DNA of 21,790 nt. Source: a virus. The stretch is taken from the IMG/VR virus record IMGVR_UViG_3300027896_005851, positions 1 to 21,790 of that record. One strand, written 5' to 3'. The translations under genes were made by a program, and so were the position numbers. The notes beneath the pieces were generated by a model. It searched no databases. It saw only the letters and a program-made list of their open reading frames with translations, and was not told the origin of the DNA. This document shows positions 1 to 20,475 of this stretch, in pieces; the first letter of the stretch is position 1, and each line of letters opens with the position of its first letter.

Positions 1-1716
1 ATGCAATTAATTCCTAATCCGCTTCTTTCCGAAGATTTGCAATTCATTAGCGCTGTTGCTCAGGGTGCTACGGGGACTCAGGGCCCCACAGGAGCTTATG
101 GGGGATCCCAAGGGGTCACAGGATTAATAGGAGTCACAGGGGTACAAGGAGAGACCGGAGTCCAGGGAGAAACAGGAGTCCAGGGTCAGACAGGAGCCCA
201 GGGGGTTCAGGGGAAGACAGGAGTACAAGGGGAGACAGGAATTCAAGGGGAGACAGGAGTCCCGGGAGTTACTGGAATAGGATTCACTGGTATTCAAGGA
301 GTTACAGGGATAGAAGGTGAAGAAGGTCTACAGGGGGATAAAGGAGAGACCGGAGTCCCAGGAATTAAGGGAGAGACCGGAGTCCAGGGAGAAACAGGAG
401 TCCAGGGTCAGACAGGAGCCCAGGGGGTTCAGGGGAAGACAGGAGTACAAGGGGAGACAGGAATTCAAGGGGAGACAGGAGTCCCGGGAGTACAAGGAGA
501 GACCGGAGTCCAGGGAGAAACAGGAGTCCAGGGTCAGACAGGAGCCCAGGGGGTTCAGGGGAAGACAGGAGTACAAGGGGAGACAGGAATTCAAGGGGAG
601 ACAGGAGTCCCGGGAGTTACTGGAATAGGATTCACTGGTATTCAAGGAGTTACAGGGATAGAAGGTGAAGAAGGTCTACAGGGGGATAAAGGAGAGACCG
701 GAGTCCCAGGAATTAAGGGAGAGACCGGAGTCCAGGGAGAAACAGGAGTCCAGGGTCAGACAGGAGCCCAGGGGGTTCAGGGGAAGACAGGAGTACAAGG
801 GGAGACAGGAATTCAAGGGGAGACAGGAGTCCCGGGAGTACAAGGAGAGACCGGAGTCCAGGGAGAAACAGGAGTCCAGGGTGAAACCGGCGTTCAAGGC
901 GTTACAGGCGTAGCCGGTGCAGGAGTAACAGGCGTTCAAGGAACTCAAGGTAATACAGGCGTTCAAGGTCAAACTGGAGTTCAAGGAACTTTGGCTCCTA
1001 TAGGTGCTATAATGCCGTATGCTGGACTGAGCGCCCCAACAGGATGGTTAATGGCAGACGGATCTGCTATATCAAGAACTACATACTCTGATCTAAAGGC
1101 TATTGTTGCACCCAGTAAAGGAACGTTCACCGTTACTATCGCAAATTCTGCAGTAGTTACGCTTAACACTCATGGATTATTGACTGGTGACTCCGTATAT
1201 CTAACTACTGACGGCGCTTTGCCAACAGGACTTACCGCGAATACTTTGTATTATGTTGTTTGGATTGATGCAGATACCTTTAACCTTGCCACCAGTTACG
1301 CAAACGCTTTTGCAGGAACAAAAATAGACACGTCTGGCACTCAGTCAGGGACGCACACCTTTACAGCGTGTCCTTATGGATTGGGAAACGGTTCGACAAC
1401 CTTTAATCTGCCTGATTTACGACAAAAAATACCAATTGGAAAAAATGCCGCTTCATTCCGGGCGCTTGGTGCAACTTCTACCGCTGCAAATCCGCCTGTT
1501 GGCGGAGAAGAATCTCATACCTTGACGGCTAATGAATCCGTAAATCATACTCACAATCTTCCTTTCCCTATTGGAAGCACTGGCGGCACTGGATTTAATT
1601 TAGGGCCATACGACAATAATGGTACGGCTGCTACTACCACTGCCACAGGATTTAACGGCGCGGCTCATAACAATTTGCAACCGTTTATAGTCTTGAATTA
1701 CATAATTAAATATTAA
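1..1716 (+). CDS. Collagen-like tail fibre protein with C-terminal Tail Collar domain
   Basis: Predicted 571-residue structural protein, probably a receptor-binding or tail fibre subunit. Residues about 20-330 are Gly-X-Y triplets dominated by GVQGETG, GVQGQTG and GVTG, the pattern of phage collagen-like triple helices. From residue 331 the chain changes to a Tail Collar (PF07484-like) domain, with APIGAIMPYAG, PTGWLMADG, FNLPDLR and a closing NNLQPFIVLNYIIKY. Between the two halves of the collar lies an insert of about 80 residues (from residue 374) containing GDSVYLTTDGALPTGL and LYYVVWIDADTF, a beta-rich type common in phage fibres. The DNA carries an exact 348-bp tandem duplication inside the collagen part. 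The gene starts at the first base of the window, so its ribosome binding site cannot be seen. Trimerisation of the shaft is inferred from the repeats. Confidence 0.85.
   Translation: MQLIPNPLLSEDLQFISAVAQGATGTQGPTGAYGGSQGVTGLIGVTGVQGETGVQGETGVQGQTGAQGVQGKTGVQGETGIQGETGVPGVTGIGFTGIQGVTGIEGEEGLQGDKGETGVPGIKGETGVQGETGVQGQTGAQGVQGKTGVQGETGIQGETGVPGVQGETGVQGETGVQGQTGAQGVQGKTGVQGETGIQGETGVPGVTGIGFTGIQGVTGIEGEEGLQGDKGETGVPGIKGETGVQGETGVQGQTGAQGVQGKTGVQGETGIQGETGVPGVQGETGVQGETGVQGETGVQGVTGVAGAGVTGVQGTQGNTGVQGQTGVQGTLAPIGAIMPYAGLSAPTGWLMADGSAISRTTYSDLKAIVAPSKGTFTVTIANSAVVTLNTHGLLTGDSVYLTTDGALPTGLTANTLYYVVWIDADTFNLATSYANAFAGTKIDTSGTQSGTHTFTACPYGLGNGSTTFNLPDLRQKIPIGKNAASFRALGATSTAANPPVGGEESHTLTANESVNHTHNLPFPIGSTGGTGFNLGPYDNNGTAATTTATGFNGAAHNNLQPFIVLNYIIKY
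151..882 (+). repeat. Exact 348-bp tandem duplication (2.1 copies) in the collagen-like gene
   Basis: Bases 151-498 and 499-846 read identically by eye, and 847-882 begins a third copy before diverging. The period is 348 bp, or 116 codons, so the reading frame is kept. Inside each unit a shorter block starting gagaccggagtcc recurs, at 151, 373, 499, 721 and 847 (spacings 222 and 126). The lack of synonymous differences between copies points to recent duplication or ongoing gene conversion. Confidence 0.9.
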
Positions 1717-2796: not shown

Positions 2797-3163
2797 GATG
2801 ATATCAGACATCCAAAAGGATTGTTCTGAAATAAGCGACAGATTAAAAGTTATATTAGGTAAATATGAAAATTTTTATCAAGAAGCTAATAGACAGCTCT
2901 ATCAAGAAAGGTCAGCTTCAGGTTTTATGAAAGGCCTTGAAGATTTCCATCATATGGTTCAATTAATAAAAAGAAATAGGGATGTTATAGGGTCACTAGT
3001 CAGAGGAATAAGTTGTTTGAGGTCTCTTAATGGATTCAAAATTATAGAAGAAGATATCCCTGAAATTCAACCAAAACCAAAAAAGAAAAGAACTCCCCCG
3101 GCTCCATCACAACCCACTGAACCTATAATATCGGAACAGACTGTGGGGATAACAAATGCCTAA
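2777..3163 (+). CDS. Hypothetical helical protein upstream of the portal
   Basis: A 128-residue protein. Residues 1-85 look helical and coiled-coil-like (DIQKDCSEISDRLKVILGKY, FHHMVQLIKRNRDVIGSLVR). The rest is a proline- and lysine-rich tail (QPKPKKKRTPPAPSQP), probably disordered. It overlaps the preceding gene by 20 bases and the portal gene by 8, so the three are one translational unit. No family recognised. An assembly factor for the portal is possible from context. Confidence 0.65.
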   Translation: MSTDLNKMISDIQKDCSEISDRLKVILGKYENFYQEANRQLYQERSASGFMKGLEDFHHMVQLIKRNRDVIGSLVRGISCLRSLNGFKIIEEDIPEIQPKPKKKRTPPAPSQPTEPIISEQTVGITNA

Positions 3164-6100
3164 AAGAATTCGTGTAGTCACAGCTCAAGGAACTCCAGCA
3201 ATGCCCATCGTTGCACAGACACAGAATCCCCAAGTGCCTAGACTTACTCAAAATGAGATTAAAGCTCGTAAATTTATTACAACTACTACTATGGGCTTTA
3301 ATAGCCTGAGAACAGCTAATTCTTTATTTGGAAGTTACGGCAATAGAACAGCTGATACTATTGATAGCCAAACAGCTCAGTTCTATTCCCCCCAGCTTTC
3401 TACCGATTTTCTTGAAAAACCTCAGAATTTACGTGAACGTAGAGCCTTTTATCGCTTTTTTTATACCACTAATGAAGTAGTCCGTAGAGCCATTGACATC
3501 CATTCAACTTTGCCTCTATCTAAGCTTCGTTTAGTTCCTCCCAAGGGAAAAAATAAGCATCAGAACGAATATGTTTATAAATTTTTTCTTGAGATGTGCG
3601 ATAAGATGAAACTTTTCAAGTCTCTTATCGAAATAGCTTTTGAGTATAATTTAATGGGAAATTGTGTTGCCTTCAATGCCGAAATAAAAGCCTCTAAGGG
3701 CTCCAAATTAGCTCAAAATGTGGAATTGGGAGACTTTCTCCTGACTGATAAAGGTAGATATAAAAAAGTCATAAACAAGTGCTCCCGACTCGTTGAAAAT
3801 ATCTTAAAAATTAAATGCTGGAAAGATTATCGTGAATTACCTGTGACAGAAGAACATCCTATAGAAATTGTCAGAGATAATTCATTCATTTTTGAAAAAG
3901 CGGAAAATTTATCCGTTAACGACTATATTAGAATTACATGGCCCATTGAAATAGAAGATAAAACTGAAATAAACCTTTCCTTTTCTGAAGATTATAAAAA
4001 AGTTGAAAATGGCTATGAGGGTATTGTTAAGATATCTCATCAAAGATCAGATATAGTAATAAAAGCTAGAAAAGGTCTAATTTCATGGCTGGGTTCTTTA
4101 AAAGAGCCGACTATAAAAACTAGACAAGAACTAGCCGCAGAATTAGATGTACCTTTAACAGTTCTTCATAGTACTGTTTATATATTACAAAATGAACTTA
4201 ATTTAAAATTTCATAAAAGGTTGCCTATAAGTAAGGGCATGAGCCAAAGGGGTTCTCAAGTTCAGTGGCTACCTATTGACACTAGTAATATAGAGACAAT
4301 AGATTACTATCTTATAACAAGACATAATCTTTTAAAGGCTATAGATACTCTAAAAATTGATAATGATCTTGCCTATCTTGCTGGATTCTGGATGGGCGAC
4401 GGAACTTTAAGTAGAGATAGTCAAAGAGATTCATGGGGACGAGGCTTGTGGCAGATCAGCCAAAAAGAATCTGAAACAAAAAATATTGATAGAATTAAAC
4501 AAATTCTTATCAACATTTTTGGACAAGATTCAATTACTGAGTGGACTTCAGAGGGCATGAAATATATAAAAGTAATATCAAACCCAGCTTTTATTGAATG
4601 GTGGGCTGAAAATTTTGGAGAAACTTCTTTTGGTAAAAACTATAAAAGAATACCTTTATGGTTTATAAAATTACCCATAGAAAAACTTCAGCACTTTATA
4701 TCTGGACTAGTGGATTCCGATGGGTGCATATCCTATACAGGAAGTAAAAAAGATTGTATTGTTAATATTTCTATGGCTTCTAAAGCCATTATGGATTCCG
4801 TAAGAGATATTGCTCTAAAATGTGGCATAGTACCAAGCTATTCAAGAACTAAAGAAAGAGATTCTCGTTTACCTAATGGTAAATTACATGAATGTAAAAA
4901 AATGTATGGCTTGACCGCCTCTGATGAAACTTCCTGTAGAATAATGACTGAATATGCCACTAAAGAAATACCAGAAGAAGCATATTTTTCCGATCAAGAA
5001 TGTGGCTTTATAAGAATAGGTAATGATATAGCCTTTAAAGTAAAATCTATTATATCTGAACCTTACAACGATCTAGTCTACAATTTTGAAGTGGCAGAAG
5101 ACCATACCTATCAGGTCGCCGGTTTCAGTACCCATAACTGCTTTATTTTCACCGAGGAAAATAATTGGCGTGATGATTGCAGCGATGCCCGTGAAGCCGC
5201 AAAAAAACTTCAAGAATCCAAACAAAGAAGCGAATACCTTAAACAACAATATCAAATAGTCGATAATGATCCCCTGTTTAAAGGCTGGGACAAAATAGTC
5301 GTCCTGCCTCCGGATCAGGTAAGAGTCAGAAAACTGCCCCTCTCATCTGAAGTAGCCGTAGAATATATGCCCGATCCCGAAACAAGAAAATATCTTACTT
5401 CAGATATTCCTATAGACCCCATGGACCCCACTCGAAAAATAAAAAATTTCGTTTCTAAAGAAATGCAGGAAAAAATCAGGTCAAGCGGAGTAATACCCCT
5501 TGACTCAGACCCCAATACAGGGTCCCATGTATTTCATCTGGCCCGTAAAAAATCTCAATATGAACCCCTTGGGACATCTATGATCGAGAGCTGCGTAAAT
5601 ACTCTTGTATTAATGGATAAACTCCGCCAGGCACAAACATCCATTGCCTCCCGACACATGACTCCCATGCGTGTTGTATGGGCGGACCAACTTAATAACG
5701 CTGACATTGATAACCTACGAGAACAAGTAGACCAGGCCCTCGTAGATCCAGATTTCAGTATTGTGGCTAACTATGAAATCCACTGGGAAGAAATGGGATC
5801 CCAAGGGCGTCTCCTTGATATTGAAGCCGAAAATGAAAGCAACCTCAACAGACTATTTGCAGGTCTGGGTGTGACCCGAGAAATCTTAACAGGTGAGGGC
5901 ACCTATACCGGCAACCGAATATCTCTCGAAATTATGAATACAGAGTACCTGCTATTTAGAGAAATACTGCAGGATTACGTTGAAAATTATTTGTTTAAAC
6001 CCATAGCCAGAAAAAAAGGCTTTGTAGAACTCGACGACTATGGTAATGAAGTACTACTTTATCCTAAACTTAGCTTCACAAGGTTGGCTATTCGGGATAA

Positions 6101-6524
6101 CGAGCATTATTTTGACTCAGTTTTTCAGCTCTATCAAAAGGGTTCTATCTCAATTGATCTGCTACTCGATGTCTTGAATATAGACCCCGAATCTACACGG
6201 CATAAGATTGAACAAGACATCTTTACAGTCAATGACAGCATATTTAATGAAGTCTTGAGAAATATTTATACCAGTGCCGCTGCCCCACTAGTCGAAAAAA
6301 CTAATGTGGTCCAAAGACTAGCCGAATATCTCAAACTTGAAATGGCTCCGGAACCCCCTCCTTCTGAAGGTGGAGAGTCAAGATTCAGCTCAGATAAAAA
6401 AGCCAGTGAACAGGAACAGCCACAGCTCTCTCAAGAACAAAAAATTAAATTAGGTAAAGTCATGAAATATTTCACGGTAAATCCCAATACTCTGGATAAA
6501 CTCCTATCTAAGGCACCTCAATAA
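3156..6524 (+). CDS. Phage portal protein precursor, interrupted by an intein
   Basis: The 1122-residue precursor should splice to a portal of about 630 residues, the ring at the capsid vertex through which DNA enters and leaves. N-extein (1-169) contains LRERRAFYRFFYTTNEVVRR, typical of the start of large-myovirus portals. The C-extein begins CFIFTEENNW and has VVLPPDQVRV, IESCVNTLVLMDKLRQAQ, GLGVTREILTGEGTYTGNR and LQDYVENYLFKPIARKKGF, the clip, stem and crown-like regions of that family. The C-terminus is acidic and glutamine-rich. The gene overlaps its upstream neighbour by 8 bases and its downstream neighbour by 1 (TAATG). Portal identity is recognised from sequence character and from its order before protease and capsid genes. 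Splicing is inferred from complete intein motifs. Confidence 0.85.
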   Translation: MPKRIRVVTAQGTPAMPIVAQTQNPQVPRLTQNEIKARKFITTTTMGFNSLRTANSLFGSYGNRTADTIDSQTAQFYSPQLSTDFLEKPQNLRERRAFYRFFYTTNEVVRRAIDIHSTLPLSKLRLVPPKGKNKHQNEYVYKFFLEMCDKMKLFKSLIEIAFEYNLMGNCVAFNAEIKASKGSKLAQNVELGDFLLTDKGRYKKVINKCSRLVENILKIKCWKDYRELPVTEEHPIEIVRDNSFIFEKAENLSVNDYIRITWPIEIEDKTEINLSFSEDYKKVENGYEGIVKISHQRSDIVIKARKGLISWLGSLKEPTIKTRQELAAELDVPLTVLHSTVYILQNELNLKFHKRLPISKGMSQRGSQVQWLPIDTSNIETIDYYLITRHNLLKAIDTLKIDNDLAYLAGFWMGDGTLSRDSQRDSWGRGLWQISQKESETKNIDRIKQILINIFGQDSITEWTSEGMKYIKVISNPAFIEWWAENFGETSFGKNYKRIPLWFIKLPIEKLQHFISGLVDSDGCISYTGSKKDCIVNISMASKAIMDSVRDIALKCGIVPSYSRTKERDSRLPNGKLHECKKMYGLTASDETSCRIMTEYATKEIPEEAYFSDQECGFIRIGNDIAFKVKSIISEPYNDLVYNFEVAEDHTYQVAGFSTHNCFIFTEENNWRDDCSDAREAAKKLQESKQRSEYLKQQYQIVDNDPLFKGWDKIVVLPPDQVRVRKLPLSSEVAVEYMPDPETRKYLTSDIPIDPMDPTRKIKNFVSKEMQEKIRSSGVIPLDSDPNTGSHVFHLARKKSQYEPLGTSMIESCVNTLVLMDKLRQAQTSIASRHMTPMRVVWADQLNNADIDNLREQVDQALVDPDFSIVANYEIHWEEMGSQGRLLDIEAENESNLNRLFAGLGVTREILTGEGTYTGNRISLEIMNTEYLLFREILQDYVENYLFKPIARKKGFVELDDYGNEVLLYPKLSFTRLAIRDNEHYFDSVFQLYQKGSISIDLLLDVLNIDPESTRHKIEQDIFTVNDSIFNEVLRNIYTSAAAPLVEKTNVVQRLAEYLKLEMAPEPPPSEGGESRFSSDKKASEQEQPQLSQEQKIKLGKVMKYFTVNPNTLDKLLSKAPQ
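3663..5138 (+). mobile_element. Intein with LAGLIDADG (DOD) homing endonuclease domain inside the portal
   Basis: Residues 170-661 of the precursor (492 residues) form an intein. Cys170 opens splicing block A (CVAFNAEIKASKGS). Block B has TEEHP with Thr231 and His234. The C-terminal blocks are YNFEVAEDHTYQVAGF followed by His660-Asn661, with Cys662 as the +1 extein nucleophile, so every classic class 1 splicing residue is present. The central part has two LAGLIDADG motifs, LAGFWMGDG (Asp415) and ISGLVDSDG (Asp522), so the endonuclease also looks active. Removal leaves an in-frame portal joining MGN to CFIF. The insertion point lies in a conserved-looking helical part of the portal, typical of inteins. 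Confidence 0.92.
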
Positions 6525-11164: not shown

Positions 11165-12049
11165 ATGCGTCAAAGACTGAGTTGGGATGCGGAGAAGGTA
11201 GCAGAGATTAGCAAGAAGGCTGATCCCTATACCATGAATCAGGATCATGCAAACAACCCGATCGAGAAGTATAAGACCGGTGATCCGTCAGCATGGGCAG
11301 AGGATCCCGATATGAGACAGCCGTGGAAGAATGAAGGCCGTAATGAAGTTGGTCTTCCTGCACCGGAGCATGCAGCTGTTCAGGCCGCGAAGAAACTTGA
11401 GGACAAGGCTCTTAAGTGCATTACAATTGCTCAGAGAATGCTTCCGGGTGCATCAGACGAGCTCATTGAGAAACAGGCAACTGATCTTATGTATATGCCT
11501 GAAGGCCGCATTATCAATACTCTTCAGCGTCAGGCTGAATTGGCGGAAGTTCTTGCCAGTAGCAAGAAAGAAGAAGAGGAAGAGGAAGTAGCCGCAGCGA
11601 AGAAGGAAGAGGAAAAGAAAGAAGAAGGCTGCAAGGAAGAGGAAGAAGTAGCTGCAGCGAAGAAGGAAGAGGAAAAGAAGGAAGAGGAAGTAGTTGAAGC
11701 AGCGAAGAAGGAAGAGGAAAAGAAGGAAGAAAAGAAGGAAGAGGAAGTAGAAGCTGCGAAAAAGGAAGAGGAAAAGAAGGAAGAGGAAGTGGAAGCTGCA
11801 AAGAAAGAGGAAAAGAAGGAAGAGGAAGAAGTAGAAGCAGCAGCGAAGAAAGACGAGCCGAAGCCGGAAGAGAAGAAAGAGGAAGAAGTAGAAGCAAGTA
11901 TTGATCTTCTTGACCAGATTTTTGCTCAGACGACTCCGAAAACAGGTGCGAAGAAACTCAGTGGTATCGTGAAACAGGCCTCTACGGACAGTATGTCCCT
12001 TGATAACCTGTGGAATGCCCCACCGGACGTTTCCCGGGCCTTTAAATAA
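11165..12049 (+). CDS. Putative scaffold or prohead core protein, rich in Glu and Lys
   Basis: A 294-residue protein with a strong ribosome binding site (aggagg). Residues 1-135 are of ordinary composition. Residues about 137-250 are a low-complexity run built from repeats such as VEAAKKEEEKKEE, a highly charged single helix or coiled coil. Residues 251-294 (IDLLDQIFAQTTPKTG, DNLWNAPPDVSRAFK) look like a short interaction domain. Helical charged proteins encoded between protease and capsid genes are normally scaffolds that the protease removes. An alternative is an internal head protein. GC content is higher than in the surrounding genes, as in the next two genes. Frameshifted and antisense ORFs in the repeat are artefacts of composition. 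Confidence 0.6.
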   Translation: MRQRLSWDAEKVAEISKKADPYTMNQDHANNPIEKYKTGDPSAWAEDPDMRQPWKNEGRNEVGLPAPEHAAVQAAKKLEDKALKCITIAQRMLPGASDELIEKQATDLMYMPEGRIINTLQRQAELAEVLASSKKEEEEEEVAAAKKEEEKKEEGCKEEEEVAAAKKEEEKKEEEVVEAAKKEEEKKEEKKEEEVEAAKKEEEKKEEEVEAAKKEEKKEEEEVEAAAKKDEPKPEEKKEEEVEASIDLLDQIFAQTTPKTGAKKLSGIVKQASTDSMSLDNLWNAPPDVSRAFK

Positions 12050-12734: not shown

Positions 12735-13610
12735 ATGCCCGATGTAATTAGTAATGAAGTGAAACAGCAGATCATCGCTGAGTTCATTAAAACCGCTGGC
12801 GGTCGTGCTAAGTTGGCAGCGTCTATGACGCAGCCGTTGCGTCTAAGGAGAGACTACACCTCTGTAGGTCGCAAGACCTTCTTGGTGGAACAACTCCCTG
12901 ACGGTGCACTTCCGATTTATGACAAAGATGCAGGTGTGACAGCATACGTGGTTGGCGAGGAAGGTCAGAACATTTTGGCAATCCAGAAGCCACGCCGTGT
13001 CATTTTCCCGCTCTTTGAGATTTCTAGTAACCCCGAAATTCCGTTGACACAGGTCAAGGAACGTCGGTTCGACCTCATCGAACGTGCTCAGGACCTTGCG
13101 AAGGCTGAAATTCAGGCTGAGGAAGACAATCGTGTCTTTGCAGTGCTGGATGCAGTCGCAACCGGAGGTTTTGACAATATCGGTGCTACGAATGCAGACG
13201 TTAATGTGGCCGCCCCTCTGACACCTGCAGATCTTGCAGATGCCTTTGCGGAAATCGAACGGGCTGACTTGCGGGTCGCAAGAGTCTTTGCTAATGCAAC
13301 AGACTATACCGACATTCGTAAGTGGGGACGTGACGTTCTCGACATCGAGAGCCAGGCAACTCTTCTGAAAACTGGTTTGCAGTCCACAGTATGGGGCGCG
13401 CAGATTATCGTTTCACGTAGGGTACCGGTTGGTAAGCTGTATGTTTGCACAGAGCCAGAGTTCTTCGGACGTATTCCTGTTCGTACAGAACTTACAGTGC
13501 TGAGTGCTGATGACCCGAGAAACCGTACAATTGGATTCTCATGCTTTGAGAATTTAGGTATCGGTTGCTACAACCCACTGGGGTTGGTCAGGGTTAAGCT
13601 GACCCGATAG
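12735..13610 (+). CDS. Major capsid protein, HK97 fold
   Basis: A 291-residue protein with an excellent ribosome binding site (taaggaggtg) 14 bases after the previous gene. Features fit the HK97 fold: a helical N-terminal part, then LRLRRDYTSVGRKTFLVEQL and IPLTQVKERRFDLIERAQDLAKAEIQAEE (positions about 97-125, the spine-helix region). Later segments ADLADAFAEIERADLR, FANATDYTDIRKWGRDV and STVWGAQIIVSRRVPVGKLY are typical of phage capsid and encapsulin-like proteins. GC-rich codons such as cgt and ctg suit high expression. An intrinsic terminator follows 24 bases after the stop. It is fairly short for a large phage, so extra mass may come from the decoration protein. Confidence 0.8.
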   Translation: MPDVISNEVKQQIIAEFIKTAGGRAKLAASMTQPLRLRRDYTSVGRKTFLVEQLPDGALPIYDKDAGVTAYVVGEEGQNILAIQKPRRVIFPLFEISSNPEIPLTQVKERRFDLIERAQDLAKAEIQAEEDNRVFAVLDAVATGGFDNIGATNADVNVAAPLTPADLADAFAEIERADLRVARVFANATDYTDIRKWGRDVLDIESQATLLKTGLQSTVWGAQIIVSRRVPVGKLYVCTEPEFFGRIPVRTELTVLSADDPRNRTIGFSCFENLGIGCYNPLGLVRVKLTR

Positions 13611-13662: not shown

Positions 13663-13799
13663 ATTTAATAATGATATCAGATATTCTAAAAAAATTAGTA
13701 TAAATTTTCGAAACGTCAACTTTCTTCATTTTTAAAAAATGAAGTTCCTGCATTAGTGGAGAGCCCTCTCTTAAACTGCAAGGTAATAAGGAGACTAGA
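13663..13799 (+). ncRNA. Candidate omega RNA (HEARO-like) region upstream of the IsrB-like gene
   Basis: In known IscB and IsrB loci the guide-bearing omega RNA is encoded directly 5' of the protein gene and ends near its ribosome binding site. Here the 137 bases between the capsid terminator and the IsrB-like start hold no ORF. They contain a hairpin at 13724-13744 (CTTCATTT with AAATGAAG), a short hairpin at 13759-13770 (GAGAGCCCTCTC), and CTGCA at 13749-13753 and 13776-13780, then the site aaggag. A TATAAA at 13700-13705 might serve as a -10 element. The stretch is shorter than the roughly 200-300 bases reported for these RNAs, so the RNA may run into the ORF or be reduced. Not proven; the exact ends and guide are unknown. 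Confidence 0.35.
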
Positions 13800-14861
13800 G
13801 TGTCCAAGATTAATGTTATGAAAACTCATGACTTTGGTCGTTTGAAGGAAACTGAACTTACTGTTCGTGGCAGAACAAAAGACATTGTAGGTGCTTCCCA
13901 AGCCAGCAATCCCTCTGTAAGTCAGTCTCGAAGGGAGAAATTACCGGACGGTAGGATTGTCCGAGATGTACAGTTAACTGTGCCCGTATTGGGGTCTGAT
14001 CCGGTTAAAAAACAGACCTTTCCACTTATGCCCTGCCACCCTGCAAGGGCTCGCCAATTAATTAAAAAGAAAGGAGCAAAAAGGCGCTGGTTTAAAGGCA
14101 TTTTTTGTATTCAATTAGTAAATAAAGTAGAAAAAAATGTTCAACAGATTGTTTGTGGTATTGACGCAGGCATGAAAAGGGAAGGCTTTACAGTTCAATC
14201 AAAGAGTCATACTTATTTAAATGTTTTATCTGATGCAGTGACAGGAATTACAGACAGGTTAAAAATTAAGAGAAGTTTTAGAGTAGCACGCAGAGGCAGA
14301 AAATGTCCTTGTAGAGCTCCTAGGCCTAATAGGCTAGTAAATTCTAAATGGGTTGCACCTTCTATAAGAAGCAGATGGAATGCTAAATTAAGAATTGTAA
14401 ATTTTTTAAGAAAATTATATCCTATTTCTGATTATATGGTTGAGGACATTAAGGCCAAAAAAGTTATAGGAGCTACGAAATGGAATAAAATTTTTAGTGT
14501 TTTAGAATTAGGTAAAACTGAATTTTATAAACAATTATCTGAATTAGGAAAAGTTACTTTTAAGAGAGGTTTTGAGACCGCTGAAGAAAGAAACAGATTA
14601 GGTTTAAAAAAATTAGGATCTAAATTAGCAGATAATTTTTATGCACATAATGTTGATTCATGGGTTTTGGCTAGTTTTATCACGGGTAAAGCTGTTATAG
14701 ATAATGAAAATGTTTTTAGAATGCTGCCTTTGAGATTTATTAGAAGAAAATTGCATTCTTTTTGGAATAAAAAAGGAGGAATTAGAGATAATAGCCATGG
14801 CTCTATGGTTGCAGGATTTAAAAGAGGCTCAGTAATTAAACATTGTCTCATGCTGGCCTAA
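13800..14861 (+). CDS. isrB: IsrB-like RNA-guided nickase (IscB relative lacking HNH)
   Basis: A 353-residue protein with GTG start and aaggag site. It has the diagnostic PLMP motif of IscB/IsrB (PLMPCHPARAR, 75-85), RuvC-I with Asp122 in GIDAGMKREGF, an arginine-rich bridge helix (about 158-178, FRVARRGRK), RuvC-II with Glu215 in YMVEDIKAK, and RuvC-III with His283 and Asp286 in AHNVDSW. Only about 65 residues separate RuvC-II and RuvC-III, with no HNH residues, which distinguishes IsrB from IscB. ETAEERNRLGLKK and the C-terminal KKGGIRDN also suit IsrB. Characterised IsrB uses an omega RNA to nick the non-target DNA strand. An N-terminal extension of about 60 residues precedes the usual start of the fold. 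No IS200/IS605 transposase is nearby, so homing, defence or regulation is possible. Confidence 0.88.
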   Translation: MSKINVMKTHDFGRLKETELTVRGRTKDIVGASQASNPSVSQSRREKLPDGRIVRDVQLTVPVLGSDPVKKQTFPLMPCHPARARQLIKKKGAKRRWFKGIFCIQLVNKVEKNVQQIVCGIDAGMKREGFTVQSKSHTYLNVLSDAVTGITDRLKIKRSFRVARRGRKCPCRAPRPNRLVNSKWVAPSIRSRWNAKLRIVNFLRKLYPISDYMVEDIKAKKVIGATKWNKIFSVLELGKTEFYKQLSELGKVTFKRGFETAEERNRLGLKKLGSKLADNFYAHNVDSWVLASFITGKAVIDNENVFRMLPLRFIRRKLHSFWNKKGGIRDNSHGSMVAGFKRGSVIKHCLMLA

Positions 14862-14872
14862 TCTTATGCAAC

Positions 14873-15808
14873 ATGAGTACAGGTAAATCTTTACCGCCGA
14901 CTAAAGATTATGAGAATTTTGAATTTTTATATTATTCTAGTTGGAGGACTTTTTGGATAGATAATGCTACTATTAATCACAGAATTAATTTTAAAGGGGG
15001 GCATAATTTTAGAGATCCTGAGAATAGGGCTTTGGCTGGTCAAACAAAATTAAAGAAATATGGAAATTCTAATTTTACTAATAGGGAAAAGGCTAAGCAA
15101 ACCTGTCTTAAAAAATATGGCGTAGATAATGTTGCTAAACTTCCCTCTGTTACTGAAAAAAAGAAAAAAACTTTAATGGTTCGTTATGGAAAAGTTTTTA
15201 ATTTTAATAATAAAAAAGAAAAATACAATATTCCTGAAAACTTTAAGTTGGAATATGAAAAGGGCTATACTCACGAAGAATTAGCGGATATGTTTAATGT
15301 CTCATATTTTTCTATTACTGAGTGGGTTAAAAGATTAAAGTTGACTAGAAAGAAGATGACTTTTAAATTTATAGATTTCTCTGATTGTATATGTTCTTCA
15401 AATTTTACTCCTGCAGATGAAGAAAATTTAATTAAAGCAGTAAAAAGAGTCTATGAAATATATCAAAAGGTTAATAAGCCTCTTATACATAATCTTAAAA
15501 ATTTTCCAATTCCTGTATATTCTATAGAGAAACATTATGGTACATGGAATAATTTTTTAAAAATAGCAGGAATTCCTCTTGAGCGCGAGTATGAAAATTA
15601 TTGTGATATAGTTAAAGATTTTTTTAATCTTTGTAAAGAAAAGGGCAAATTTTTGTCTTTTTATAAATATGGAAAATTAGTTGGACAGAACAAAATGTTA
15701 AAATTAAAACGAATGTTTAATAATGGCGGCAAATATTCTCATCTAAAGGTGGAGCTAAAAAAGGTTTGGAGCACAGATTATACTGCTTTTTTAAATAATT
15801 TTGTTTAA
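14873..15808 (+). CDS. Probable DNA-binding protein with homing-endonuclease-associated repeats
   Basis: Read from ATG 14873 this is 311 residues. A TTG at 14843, overlapping the IsrB-like gene, would give 321. Neither start has a clear ribosome binding site, so coupling to the upstream gene 12 bases away is likely. Residues about 58-110 carry three KYG-type repeats (LKKYGNSNF, LKKYGVDNV, MVRYGKVFNF), known from phage endonucleases. Residues 131-157 form a helix-turn-helix (HEELADMFNVSYFSITEWV). Residues 217-235 (SIEKHYGTWNNFLKIAGIP) match the HNH-associated repeat pattern (PF18780-like), weakly echoed near 265-290. No LAGLIDADG, HNH or GIY-YIG catalytic motif is visible. It may be a nuclease-less relic of a homing enzyme or a partner of the IsrB-like protein. 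Its end overlaps the convergent gene by 18 bases. Confidence 0.6.
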   Translation: MSTGKSLPPTKDYENFEFLYYSSWRTFWIDNATINHRINFKGGHNFRDPENRALAGQTKLKKYGNSNFTNREKAKQTCLKKYGVDNVAKLPSVTEKKKKTLMVRYGKVFNFNNKKEKYNIPENFKLEYEKGYTHEELADMFNVSYFSITEWVKRLKLTRKKMTFKFIDFSDCICSSNFTPADEENLIKAVKRVYEIYQKVNKPLIHNLKNFPIPVYSIEKHYGTWNNFLKIAGIPLEREYENYCDIVKDFFNLCKEKGKFLSFYKYGKLVGQNKMLKLKRMFNNGGKYSHLKVELKKVWSTDYTAFLNNFV

Positions 15809-16793: not shown

Positions 16794-17570
16794 TTATTGA
16801 TATTTTTTAGGGAGTTTATATCTTAAGTCATTTGTGATTTCGGATTGAATATATGACCAAGCTTTGTCATGGCTGTTTTTGAGAATACAAATATTGCCTT
16901 CATTTTTATACCAGGTAATGCTTACAGATAAATCAAGAAATTTTTTAAAAATTTTTATTGCATTGGATTTATTGTTTTTAAAATATTTGTCATATGTAAC
17001 AATATTAAAACCATATTTTGATTTTATTCCATCATCCATCCACCAATAAGCAAAGCCTACAGGAGTAATTTCAGATAGAATCTTTGCTGTTATTAATTTT
17101 TTTCTTTTAGGATAAAATTTTGTTCTGTAATAAGTGAATTGGGGCAAAGCGAAAGATCTACTACATATAAAAGGAAAATTTTTTCCTTCTTTTTTAAAAG
17201 GCCTTTTTCCATAGAATATTTTAGAAATAAGCGGTTCTAATATTTGAGCTTTTTTTAAAAGTAATTCTTTTTGGGCAAGACAATGAGTGCACTTCCAATA
17301 GCCCGTTCCAGAAGCCTGAGTAGCAATCATTGAATCTCCCATAAGACTGCCGTGTAAAACTTCTTTTTGATAAATAGTAAGATTAAGATGCCTGAGAGGA
17401 TTTCTATGGAATTGGTATCTTTTATCCGTTTTAATTCCATATATTTTTCGAAGTTTATTAATCCAATTAATGGTCAAATTATATTTTTGAGCTATTTCTT
17501 TGTCATTAAGTTTATTGCCTTTATATTCTTTGCATAGTATTTCCTTGGGCATTTTAGCTTTTAATGCCAT
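16794..17570 (-). CDS. LAGLIDADG homing endonuclease (family 2 type)
   Basis: I choose the ATG at 17570, preceded on the minus strand by aaggga at good spacing, giving 258 residues. An in-frame GTG at 17609 would add 13. LHGSLMGDSMI (Asp79) and GFAYWWMDDGIK (Asp180) are the two LAGLIDADG motifs. Residues 20-45 form a helix-turn-helix (LNDKEIAQKYNLTINWINKL), the same N-terminal arrangement as in the three sibling genes. CTHC (94-97) recurs as CSHC in the gene at 17634. It is first in a two-gene minus-strand unit and divergent from the gene at 17634. Confidence 0.88.
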   Translation of the reverse strand: MALKAKMPKEILCKEYKGNKLNDKEIAQKYNLTINWINKLRKIYGIKTDKRYQFHRNPLRHLNLTIYQKEVLHGSLMGDSMIATQASGTGYWKCTHCLAQKELLLKKAQILEPLISKIFYGKRPFKKEGKNFPFICSRSFALPQFTYYRTKFYPKRKKLITAKILSEITPVGFAYWWMDDGIKSKYGFNIVTYDKYFKNNKSNAIKIFKKFLDLSVSITWYKNEGNICILKNSHDKAWSYIQSEITNDLRYKLPKKYQ

Positions 17571-17616
17571 GAATTTCCCTTGGCTTATAAAAATTTTGTT
17601 TATTATCACGCCTATT

Positions 17617-17633: not shown

Positions 17634-18452
17634 ATGAATAAATCAAGTTTTAATGAAAGAATTCTTCAAGAATTATACTATTCTAAGAAAAATGAAGCGG
17701 CTAAAATTATAGTGGCCATGCATGAACAAGGGAAATCTTTTGATTCTATTGCTAAAATTTTAAATGTTAATAGGACTTCATTGACGCGATTATTAGATAA
17801 AAATAACATTGAGTACCATATTCCTCTTCGTAAGCGGCCTAAGGGCCTTTTTGAATACTCTCTTACTGCATTACAAAGATCAATTCTTATTGGCGAGATG
17901 TTTGGTGATGGGAATTTATGCAGGTCTTCAAACAAGGCAGCTTATTACCAATGTTCTCATTGTAAGGATCAAGAATTATTTGTTCAATGGAAATATGATG
18001 TTTTTTTACCTTTGAGTTGTAGAATGAGGCCTTTTAAAATAAAGGACAAGAGGTCAGGAACTGAAAGTGGAGCCATTTCTATGGCAACGTGGTCTAATGC
18101 CGAATTAAAGAATTGGCGGGATCAATTTTATCCTTCCGGGCAAGGCAATAAACAGCCCTCTGCTGAATTAGCCGAATTATTAGATCCTTTAGGTTTAGCT
18201 GTTTGGTTTATGGGAGATGGCTCAAAAGAAAAAAATAAGGGAAAATATACTGTAGGAAAACAAATAAATGTAGCACCTATTGTTCAGGTTTTAAATAGAA
18301 AATTTGGTAATATTTTTTATTTGAGGGACGACGATAAACAATGGTCGATATGTATTAAAGACGCAGACAAATTTTTTAATTTAATAGGCCAATATATAAT
18401 TCCTTCAATGAAATATAAAATTCCTTTTAAATTCCTTCACTATGAATATTGA
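17634..18452 (+). CDS. LAGLIDADG homing endonuclease (family 2 type)
   Basis: A 272-residue protein with an N-terminal helix-turn-helix (SFDSIAKILNVNRTSLTRLL, 35-54) and two LAGLIDADG motifs: LIGEMFGDGNL (Asp92) and GLAVWFMGDGSK (Asp195). The second motif has GDG where its siblings have DDG, but the catalytic aspartate remains. CSHC (107-110) matches CTHC in the minus-strand sibling, showing close kinship. The ATG lacks an obvious ribosome binding site. The 3' end overlaps the next gene by 11 bases. Confidence 0.87.
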   Translation: MNKSSFNERILQELYYSKKNEAAKIIVAMHEQGKSFDSIAKILNVNRTSLTRLLDKNNIEYHIPLRKRPKGLFEYSLTALQRSILIGEMFGDGNLCRSSNKAAYYQCSHCKDQELFVQWKYDVFLPLSCRMRPFKIKDKRSGTESGAISMATWSNAELKNWRDQFYPSGQGNKQPSAELAELLDPLGLAVWFMGDGSKEKNKGKYTVGKQINVAPIVQVLNRKFGNIFYLRDDDKQWSICIKDADKFFNLIGQYIIPSMKYKIPFKFLHYEY

Positions 18453-20475
18453 TAAAGATATTCTAATAGATTTTTACGTTAATAAAAAATTAACTGATAA
18501 AAAAATCTCAGAATTATATGGTTGTTCAGAGAACGCTATTAGAATTAAGAGAAAAAAATTTAACATTGAAACTATAGACAGGTTTTTAGAACGTAAAAAT
18601 TTTTTATCAGCTTTGTCTAATGATGAATTAAAAAATATTATAAAAAACTCTAATTATAGGGCTATTCAGGAACAACTGGGCTTATCGTGTTTTACTTGGA
18701 AAAAGGAACTTAAAAGGCGCGGTCTAAATATGAAAAGCACCTGGAGAATTGAACAGTATCCTGAATTAACCCGAGAACAAATTATTATGTTAATAGGGAG
18801 CTCTCTTGGCGATGGCGGTTTTACTGAAGATGGTAGATTTTTTGAAGCGCATGCCCCAGCTCAATATCAATATTTATTAAAAAAACATGCTATTCTGAAG
18901 CCTTTTAGTTGTGACATTTATAAAGATTATGCACATGACGGATTATTCTGCTATCGCTTTACAACTATTTCACATCCTTATTTCAAGAAATTCAGAGATA
19001 TTTTTTATGAGCCTAATCTTAGAGGCAAATTAATTCCTTTAGATTTTATTAAAGCTTTCTGGCATGATGATATTCTTGGTACGTGGTTTTGTGATGATGG
19101 CCATTATGATGAAAAAAGTGGCGTTTTTTTAATTGCCAATAAATGCCCCTATCCTGATCAGCTATATGACTTTGTAACTTTTTTGAGTTGGCATTACCAG
19201 GCTGAGTTTAAAATTTATACTGGGTCTGATATTTTTAATGTTAAAATTCCTTTGTCTTTTAGGGACCAGTTTATTAAAATCGTTCTGAATGTGGCTACTC
19301 CGGATATGCTTTATAAAGTTCCTGAATCTTATCGTAATCTTCCCGGGATAAAGTCAGAGAAAAAGTTTTTACACCCTCTATATGGGGACAAAATTCAAGG
19401 CCCTTTAAAATTAACAGAATTACAGAAAGATATTTTAATAGGCACTATTTTTGGAGATTCAGGGATATATCAATCTGGAAGAGGCACGGCTGCTTATCTT
19501 ATATCAGAGCATGCTTGGCCTCAAATAGAATATTTAAAAACAAAGGCAGAATTATTTAAGCCGCTAACTTGCCAGATATACAATAATAAACCAAATAGTA
19601 AAAACCAGGATTATCAGATAGGATTTAGGACTTATGTTACTGAGGAATTAGGCTTTTACAGGAATCTTTTTTATACTCAATTAGTTCCTGGTAAAAAGCA
19701 TCTACAAAGAAATATTTTAAAGCCAGAATTATGGGATTTATTAAAGCCCATTTCTTTGGCTTATTGGCTTATGGATGACGGGAAAAAATATGGGAAGGGC
19801 ATTTTCATTGTTATTGGAAAGCGCTTTTATTATGACAAAAAAGTTTTAGAAAGTCTTGTAAATTCTTTAAATGATAAATTTAGTATAGACCTTAAAGTAA
19901 GAGAAGAGAAACTATGCTACGGCGTCTATGCTAATCAGAATTCTAAGTTTATAGAATTAATTAGGCCTTTTATCCTGTCTTATTTTGATTATAAAGTGAG
20001 TTTACCTCGTGAACAATTGGGTTCCTTTTATGAACAATTTGATTGGTATAAGAAATGGTCTATTATTAAAAAAACTGTAGTTTCGTTTTTAGAAACTAAT
20101 AGGTCTCCGAATTATTTTACAGTGGGGACTTTTAAATGTCTTTGTGGTAAGACTTTCGATTCAAAGCTTAAATGTTCTAGGCATGAGTCTACTTGTAAAA
20201 GTTATAGGATTGAATATAAGAAAAAAATAGAATTAAGAAATAATGGCTTTATTGAAGAAAATGTAGATTATGTTCAATGTAAGGAATGTTTATATAAGGC
20301 TGAAGACTTGACTAGGCATTTATTTGAGGCCAAATATCCTCACATATCTTTTAAAGAATATAGAATTAAGTATCCTGATCAAAAATATGTGGCATTTAAG
20401 GTTGTGGAAAGAAGGACTCAAACTCGTTTAAAAAATAAAATTTTTAAAAGAAAGGACTCTTATGTCGGACTATAA
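18442..20475 (+). CDS. Tandem double LAGLIDADG endonuclease with zinc-finger-like C-terminus
   Basis: A 677-residue protein containing two complete LAGLIDADG pairs: LIGSSLGDGGF (Asp124) with LGTWFCDDGHY (Asp219), then LIGTIFGDSGI (Asp339) with LAYWLMDDGKK (Asp446). One pair normally makes a full monomeric enzyme, so this looks like two endonucleases in one chain. The N-terminus has a helix-turn-helix (LTDKKISELYGCSENAIRIK). The C-terminus carries two putative zinc modules, C566, C568, C578, H581, C585 and C613, C616, H626, H634, the second followed by FKEYRIKYPDQK as in phage-associated finger domains. It overlaps both neighbours (by 11 and 14 bases) on the same strand. All four acidic positions are intact. 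Origin by fusion of adjacent paralogues is likely, given the sibling genes next door. Confidence 0.85.
   Translation: MNIDKDILIDFYVNKKLTDKKISELYGCSENAIRIKRKKFNIETIDRFLERKNFLSALSNDELKNIIKNSNYRAIQEQLGLSCFTWKKELKRRGLNMKSTWRIEQYPELTREQIIMLIGSSLGDGGFTEDGRFFEAHAPAQYQYLLKKHAILKPFSCDIYKDYAHDGLFCYRFTTISHPYFKKFRDIFYEPNLRGKLIPLDFIKAFWHDDILGTWFCDDGHYDEKSGVFLIANKCPYPDQLYDFVTFLSWHYQAEFKIYTGSDIFNVKIPLSFRDQFIKIVLNVATPDMLYKVPESYRNLPGIKSEKKFLHPLYGDKIQGPLKLTELQKDILIGTIFGDSGIYQSGRGTAAYLISEHAWPQIEYLKTKAELFKPLTCQIYNNKPNSKNQDYQIGFRTYVTEELGFYRNLFYTQLVPGKKHLQRNILKPELWDLLKPISLAYWLMDDGKKYGKGIFIVIGKRFYYDKKVLESLVNSLNDKFSIDLKVREEKLCYGVYANQNSKFIELIRPFILSYFDYKVSLPREQLGSFYEQFDWYKKWSIIKKTVVSFLETNRSPNYFTVGTFKCLCGKTFDSKLKCSRHESTCKSYRIEYKKKIELRNNGFIEENVDYVQCKECLYKAEDLTRHLFEAKYPHISFKEYRIKYPDQKYVAFKVVERRTQTRLKNKIFKRKDSYVGL

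What the first reader, a model, noticed from the sequence alone, without database searches (positions are those of the whole stretch)
13800..14861. Phage-encoded IsrB-like RNA-guided nickase directly behind the major capsid gene
Seen in the sequence: the PLMP motif, bridge helix and all RuvC residues (D122, E215, H283, D286) are present and the HNH domain is absent. Established: IsrB belongs to the OMEGA systems related to the ancestors of Cas9 and nicks DNA guided by an omega RNA, usually in IS200/IS605-type contexts. Inference: with no TnpA transposase here and a cluster of homing endonucleases beside it, this copy may be an RNA-guided homing element or an anti-competitor weapon that targets the capsid locus of related phages.
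Basis: partly seen in the sequence, partly recalled or inferred. Interest (0 to 1): 0.88.

Follow-up and report, generated by a model that had tools for sequence, protein, structure and literature searches.

The report
Phage RNA-guided nickase aimed at capsid gene
In a family of giant bacterial viruses, an RNA-guided DNA-nicking enzyme sits right behind the major capsid gene, is joined in relatives to a homing-enzyme module, and carries a fixed guide sequence that fits the capsid gene of related viruses, so it may spread by, or fight with, RNA-guided homing.

Summary
The ORF at 13800-14861 is a genuine IsrB (Pfam RRXRR 3.5e-30; best solved-structure match DtIsrB 8dmb, 5e-28; RuvC residues conserved; no HNH). 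Two corrections. Its first ~60 codons are not protein but omegaRNA: a covariance model built only from other IsrB loci hits 13849-13933 at E=1.5e-18. Its C-terminus is cut by a ~32-nt deletion/frameshift at 14843; ORF 14843-15808 is its continuation. In intact relatives (L006, L020, L090) IsrB runs in frame into a DUF7487/helical module that also occurs on LAGLIDADG-methyltransferase homing-type enzymes and on Zn-finger proteins in the same post-capsid hotspot of ~80 related huge-phage contigs. The 5' end of the omegaRNA, variable (the guide) in ordinary IsrBs, is conserved in this clade (yAArTTTTCGAArC) and matches, antisense and in codon register, the capsid codons C-F-E-N-L 150-170 nt upstream (joint permutation p about 0.001-0.003). 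The window's own site has an NTGA TAM but three synonymous seed mismatches. Best reading: an RNA-guided, intronless-homing/marker-exclusion nickase with a hard-wired capsid guide; this copy is probably damaged. Identity is solid; the targeting function is well-motivated inference, untested.

The parts
12735..13610 (+). Major capsid protein gene (HK97 fold), neighbour and proposed target gene
   Evidence: phrog_2522 major head protein 1.9e-52; NCBIfam capsid_Caudo_2 2.3e-44
13543..13556 (-). Proposed protospacer inside the capsid gene (antisense of codons C-F-E-N-L): TAAATTCTCAAAGC; own site differs from own guide at 3 positions, all synonymous
13539..13542 (-). Candidate TAM ATGA (fits NTGA of DtIsrB) next to the proposed protospacer
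   Evidence: TAM preference from PMC9581776
13701..13714 (+). Guide segment of the omegaRNA: TAAATTTTCGAAAC, immediately before scaffold GTCAAC
   Evidence: conserved in L006, L018, L020, L090, variable in ordinary IsrB loci
13715..13979 (+). omegaRNA scaffold (approximate 3' end)
   Evidence: comparative alignment of IsrB upstream regions
13849..13933 (+). Conserved omegaRNA core matched by covariance model R1 (89.5 bits, E 1.5e-18); overlaps the called N-terminal ORF extension
13980..14861 (+). IsrB protein: PLMP, RuvC I, bridge helix, RuvC II/III; truncated in the TAM-interacting domain. In-frame GTG at 13980 is a plausible start (inferred)
14843..14846 (.). Deletion/frameshift junction relative to intact relatives (about 32 nt missing)
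   Evidence: contig L002 ends at 14843
14846..14950 (+). Out-of-frame remnant of the IsrB C-terminal (TAM-interacting) domain
   Evidence: tblastn of L006 and L020 fusions
14951..15808 (+). C-terminal module (DUF7487, HTH-like helices, 'homing endonuclease associated repeat'), fused in frame to IsrB in L006, L020, L090
15791..16789 (-). LAGLIDADG_2 endonuclease gene of the same hotspot
16794..17609 (-). LAGLIDADG_2 endonuclease gene
17634..18452 (+). LAGLIDADG_2 endonuclease gene
18442..20475 (+). LAGLIDADG_2 endonuclease gene with two matched stretches

Best explanation
This is the IsrB + omegaRNA part of a free-standing mobile gene that behaves like a homing endonuclease with an RNA guide. 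The omegaRNA carries a hard-wired guide of about 14-16 nt that pairs with the coding strand of the major capsid gene at codons C-F-E-N-L (shown: the match; inferred: pairing). In a co-infected cell the RNP, helped in intact relatives by the C-terminal homing-type DNA-binding module, would nick the capsid gene of a related phage that lacks the element; recombinational repair from the donor would copy the post-capsid cassette, with the donor's capsid end, into the recipient (inferred: intronless homing / marker exclusion). Donor genomes are shielded by synonymous seed mismatches (window) or lack of an NTG TAM (L006, L018, L020, L090). The copy in the window is probably a damaged member.
For: IsrB identity. 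Genuine omegaRNA: with 21 of 27 pairs showing compensatory changes in the training set. Guide at the RNA 5' end: the scaffold begins at GTCAAC in all clades, and L018/L020 have TTGACT-N17-TATAAT ending just before the guide. Guide frozen in four lineages 54-59% identical in protein, variable elsewhere. For all four guides the best site in the codon-aligned capsid genes of 81-82 relatives is the same one; joint permutation 7/6000 and 15/6000. 3 of the 4 variable guide positions fall on wobble positions of the target codons. Own site with NTGA TAM and three synonymous mismatches. IsrB sits behind the capsid gene in all four lineages. In-frame fusion to a module shared with LAGLIDADG-methyltransferase enzymes and Zn-finger proteins of the same hotspot. 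Near-identical phages L017 (no IsrB) and L020 (IsrB fusion) lose identity from the last ~130 bp of the capsid gene and regain it inside the shared module. Nicking homing enzymes and intronless homing are known in phages (PMC12908238; PMC2988022).
Against: The four guides are homologous, so the match is one observation with p about 0.001-0.003, found after looking. Within one genome a 14-mer with 3 mismatches is expected by chance. Only 14 of 82 relatives have an NTG at the TAM position; perfect 14-nt targets (L172, L176) lack it, and targets with the full 10-nt seed plus NTGA (L035, L036, L246) have TAM-distal mismatches. LAGLIDADG genes in the same cassette could explain the conversion tract. 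The window copy is frameshifted. No expression or nicking data.
Confidence: 0.55

Rival explanations
1. Ordinary transposon-type IsrB relic: the guide is flanking DNA captured at insertion, and its likeness to the capsid gene is coincidence.
For: Ordinary IsrBs in viral contigs and MAGs carry unrelated guides and are multicopy. Self-locus scan not significant. Window copy is truncated.
Against: Guide conserved in four diverged lineages although the DNA just upstream is not; constant location behind the capsid gene; same capsid site best for all guides; no TnpA seen among the ORFs scanned.
Confidence: 0.2
2. The RNP or the RNA alone regulates the phage's own capsid gene (antisense pairing to capsid mRNA, or RNA-guided repression as in phage-borne TldR).
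For: The guide is complementary to capsid mRNA; phage-encoded RNA-guided repressors exist (TldR, PMC13418256).
Against: RuvC catalytic residues are intact, unlike in TldR (general knowledge); own capsid sites mismatch the guide or lack an NTG TAM; the target is at the far 3' end of the gene.
Confidence: 0.1
3. Passenger: LAGLIDADG enzymes drive mobility of the post-capsid cassette; IsrB rides along and may be decaying.
For: LAGLIDADG genes follow the capsid gene in most relatives; frameshift in the window.
Against: L006 has the fused IsrB behind the capsid gene without any LAGLIDADG hit in its contig; core under purifying selection (12 synonymous / 6 nonsynonymous codons); RuvC residues invariant.
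Confidence: 0.15

Closest known systems
IsrB OMEGA nickase (DtIsrB, PDB 8dmb; K2IsrB from a viral metagenome, PMC9581776)
   Same: PLMP-RuvC-bridge helix without HNH; upstream omegaRNA with 5' guide; core fold (Foldseek E 5.7e-21)
   Different: Clade-fixed guide matching a neighbouring phage gene; fixed locus; C-terminal homing-type module in relatives; no TnpA seen; window copy truncated in the TI domain
IscB / HEARO
   Same: Same superfamily; RRXRR domain; structured upstream RNA
   Different: No HNH; NCBIfam guided_IscB score 98.6, below cutoff 175; no Rfam hit at gathering threshold and HEARO not among weak hits
Free-standing homing endonucleases of T4-like phages (SegF, SegG; intronless homing, PMC2988022)
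   Same: Gene next to target gene, diverged donor site, hotspot of mobile endonuclease genes, conversion-like tract
   Different: Specificity from an RNA guide; RuvC nickase core
TldR phage-encoded RNA-guided repressors (PMC13418256)
   Same: Phage-borne, transposon-derived, fixed guide
   Different: TnpB lineage and nuclease-dead (general knowledge); here RuvC intact and IsrB lineage

Membership tests
IsrB | PLMP/RRXRR domain with RuvC and Arg-rich bridge helix | tested here: met
   Pfam RRXRR 3.5e-30; 8dmb 5.2e-28
IsrB | RuvC I/II/III catalytic residues | tested here: met
   Aligned with 8dmb, invariant in the clade
IsrB | HNH domain absent | tested here: met
   No HNH in Pfam or NCBIfam
IsrB | Complete C-terminal TAM-interacting domain | tested here: not met
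   Lost by deletion/frameshift in the window; open frame in L006, L020, L090
IsrB | Upstream omegaRNA | tested here: met
   CM hit E 1.5e-18
IsrB | RNA-guided nicking of the non-target strand | not testable with these tools
   Needs biochemistry
IsrB | IS200/IS605 context with TnpA | tested here: not met
   No Y1 transposase among the ORFs scanned with Pfam; many IsrB loci lack it too
IscB / HEARO | NCBIfam guided_IscB cutoff, HNH, HEARO RNA | tested here: not met
   98.6 of 175 bits; no HEARO hit
Free-standing homing endonuclease | Gene adjacent to its target gene | tested here: met
   Candidate target 145-172 nt upstream of the guide
Free-standing homing endonuclease | Donor site resistant, recipient site sensitive | tested here: inconclusive
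   Every donor has seed mismatches or no NTG; few relatives have seed plus NTG
Free-standing homing endonuclease | Presence/absence polymorphism with co-conversion tract | tested here: inconclusive
   L017 versus L020; LAGLIDADG genes confound
Free-standing homing endonuclease | Site-specific cleavage and biased inheritance | not testable with these tools
   Needs crosses
Known anti-phage defence protein | PADLOC model match | tested here: not met
   None

The most novel reading that the evidence does not exclude
An RNA-guided homing endonuclease: IsrB captured by a huge-phage homing hotspot, fused to a homing-type DNA-binding module, with a germ-line-fixed guide against the capsid gene of competing phages.
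Probability: 0.5. Interest if true: 0.9.

Novelty: new variant of a known kind. Interest (0 to 1): 0.76.

Why it matters
OMEGA nucleases are thought to help transposons persist, with guides that change at each insertion. A phage clade in which the guide is frozen and fits a neighbouring essential gene of rivals would join two fields, RNA-guided nucleases and homing endonucleases, and give a natural function for IsrB nicking. It yields sharp predictions (site, TAM, donor immunity) and an intact natural IsrB fusion to test. In the papers searched (PMC open licences only) I found no description of it.

Tried and rejected
Rfam on the window and at relaxed threshold on the locus: no meaningful RNA hit. 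Guide against its own locus alone: not significant. Four-residue codon-register scan of all guides: no power, and it omitted the reverse-complement frames. Extra DNA hits to guide+scaffold in viral contigs (L162, L165, L167, L169-L171): no IsrB homology, judged chance. A second case, IscB behind the portal gene in L031 whose guide resembles portal codons F-N-E-V: shuffles 7-19% depending on length, so only a lead; its IscB relatives show no own-locus excess. Fold search of the C-terminal module: nothing significant. More fusion members in genome and viral collections: none beyond those listed. Defence library: none.

Full report
What is there. The window is a 21,790-base virus record. Its capsid protein is 77% identical to that of a 485-kb uncultured phage (LR745208) and homologous to phage G, so it is very probably a fragment of a huge phage. 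The ORF 13800-14861 is an IsrB: Pfam RRXRR 3.5e-30, NCBIfam guided_IscB 3.5e-28 but below that model's cutoff, best solved-structure match 8dmb DtIsrB 5.2e-28 with RuvC I-III aligned. The predicted structure of the related fusion L020 also finds 8dmb first (E 5.7e-21). HNH is absent.

The RNA. Alignment of the DNA upstream of about 34 IsrB loci shows a common scaffold that begins at GTCAAC. A covariance model made only from 17 non-clade loci (21 of 27 pairs with compensatory changes) finds the window at 13849-13933 with 89.5 bits, E 1.5e-18. The RNA overlaps the first 60 codons of the called ORF. Between L020 and L018 this stretch changes like RNA (codon positions 10/7/7; 5 synonymous, 14 nonsynonymous codons) while the core changes like protein (3/3/12; 12 and 6), and residues 1-58 of the L020 model have pLDDT below 50. 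The protein therefore probably starts near 13980.

The C-terminus. L006 (691 aa), L020 (625 aa) and L090 (645 aa) run in frame from IsrB into a module with DUF7487 and helical, HTH-like units. In the window about 32 nt are missing and the frame shifts at 14843-14846; the next ORF starts with the IsrB tail and continues with the module. Much of the TAM-interacting domain described in PMC9581776 is lost, so this copy is probably inactive unless the junction is an assembly or strain artefact; the 99.96% identical contig L002 stops exactly there. Pieces of the module also end LAGLIDADG-methyltransferase proteins (L012, L023, L040) and Zn-finger proteins (L010, L017, L021) in the same hotspot. The stretch behind the capsid gene holds LAGLIDADG genes in most of the 80 relatives.

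The guide. In ordinary IsrBs the 14-20 nt before GTCAAC differ from locus to locus; in this clade they are nearly constant: TAAATTTTCGAAAC (window 13701-13714), TAAGTTTTCGAAGC (L018, L020), CAAGTTTTCGAAGC (L006), TAAGTTTTCGAAGT (L090). L018 and L020 have TTGACT-N17-TATAAT placed so that transcription would begin just before this segment. The segment is the antisense of capsid codons C-F-E-N-L. For all four guides this is the best site in the codon-aligned capsid genes; permuting the 14 positions jointly reaches the observed counts in 7 of 6000 (three or fewer mismatches) and 15 of 6000 (two or fewer). The guides share ancestry, so this is one observation, and it was found by exploring; I treat it as good, not conclusive. 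Three of four variable guide positions fall on wobble positions of the target. The window's own site has ATGA on the TAM side and differs from the guide at three synonymous positions; the own sites of L006, L018, L020 and L090 lack an NTG. Published IsrB TAMs are NTG, NTGA, NTGG (PMC9581776), and the related HEARO enzymes tolerate few mismatches up to position 13 (PMC9755519), which makes donor immunity plausible. Candidate recipients with the full 10-nt seed and NTGA exist (L035, L036, L246).

Exchange at the locus. L017 (no IsrB in its contig) and L020 (fusion) are 98-100% identical over most of the kilobase before the capsid end, drop to about 80% in the last ~130 bp, differ completely behind it and regain 87% identity inside the shared module. 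That is the pattern expected of cassette replacement with co-conversion, but LAGLIDADG genes lie in both cassettes and could have caused it.

Mechanism. Shown: IsrB, omegaRNA, frozen guide, fusion in relatives, hotspot, capsid match. Inferred: the RNP nicks the capsid gene of related phages and repair copies the cassette. Nicking homing enzymes and intronless homing with marker exclusion are established in phages (PMC2988022; [quoted passage not shown] PMC11620839, abstract). Whether the benefit here is gene spread or interference cannot be told.

Verdict. New variant of a known kind: an IsrB by membership, apart from the damaged TI domain in this copy, that probably works like a free-standing homing endonuclease.

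Noticed in passing
window 3156-6524: Portal protein gene carries an intein with LAGLIDADG_3/Hom_end domains.
   Followed up: no
window 1-1716: Collagen-like GETGVQGxTG repeats in a tail-fibre-like ORF.
   Followed up: no
window 11165-12049: Head-region protein with long EEKKEEE low-complexity repeats.
   Followed up: no
L031 1-1708: Full IscB with HNH inserted between portal and the next gene in a related huge phage; its guide resembles portal codons F-N-E-V, but shuffles reach this 7-19% of the time.
   Followed up: partly
L012 2157-4907, L023 2658-5078, L040 3561-6059: LAGLIDADG proteins continuing into a DNA-methylase-like region (N6_N4_Mtase match clear in L012, weak in L023, read from motif in L040) and the same C-terminal module; a homing enzyme that may protect its own genome by methylation.
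   Followed up: no
L198-L205: Eight contigs of one Ardenticatenales MAG each carry an IsrB, suggesting recent multiplication without a phage context.
   Followed up: no
L223, L228: At least two IsrB copies with different upstream DNA in one 68-kb viral contig.
   Followed up: no
L004 5941-7089: Microcystis phage LMM01 gp171, annotated as RRXRR domain protein, is an IsrB-like gene (30.8% identity).
   Followed up: no
L002 end / window 14843: A near-identical contig ends exactly at the frameshift junction, hinting at strain variation or an assembly problem there.
   Followed up: partly
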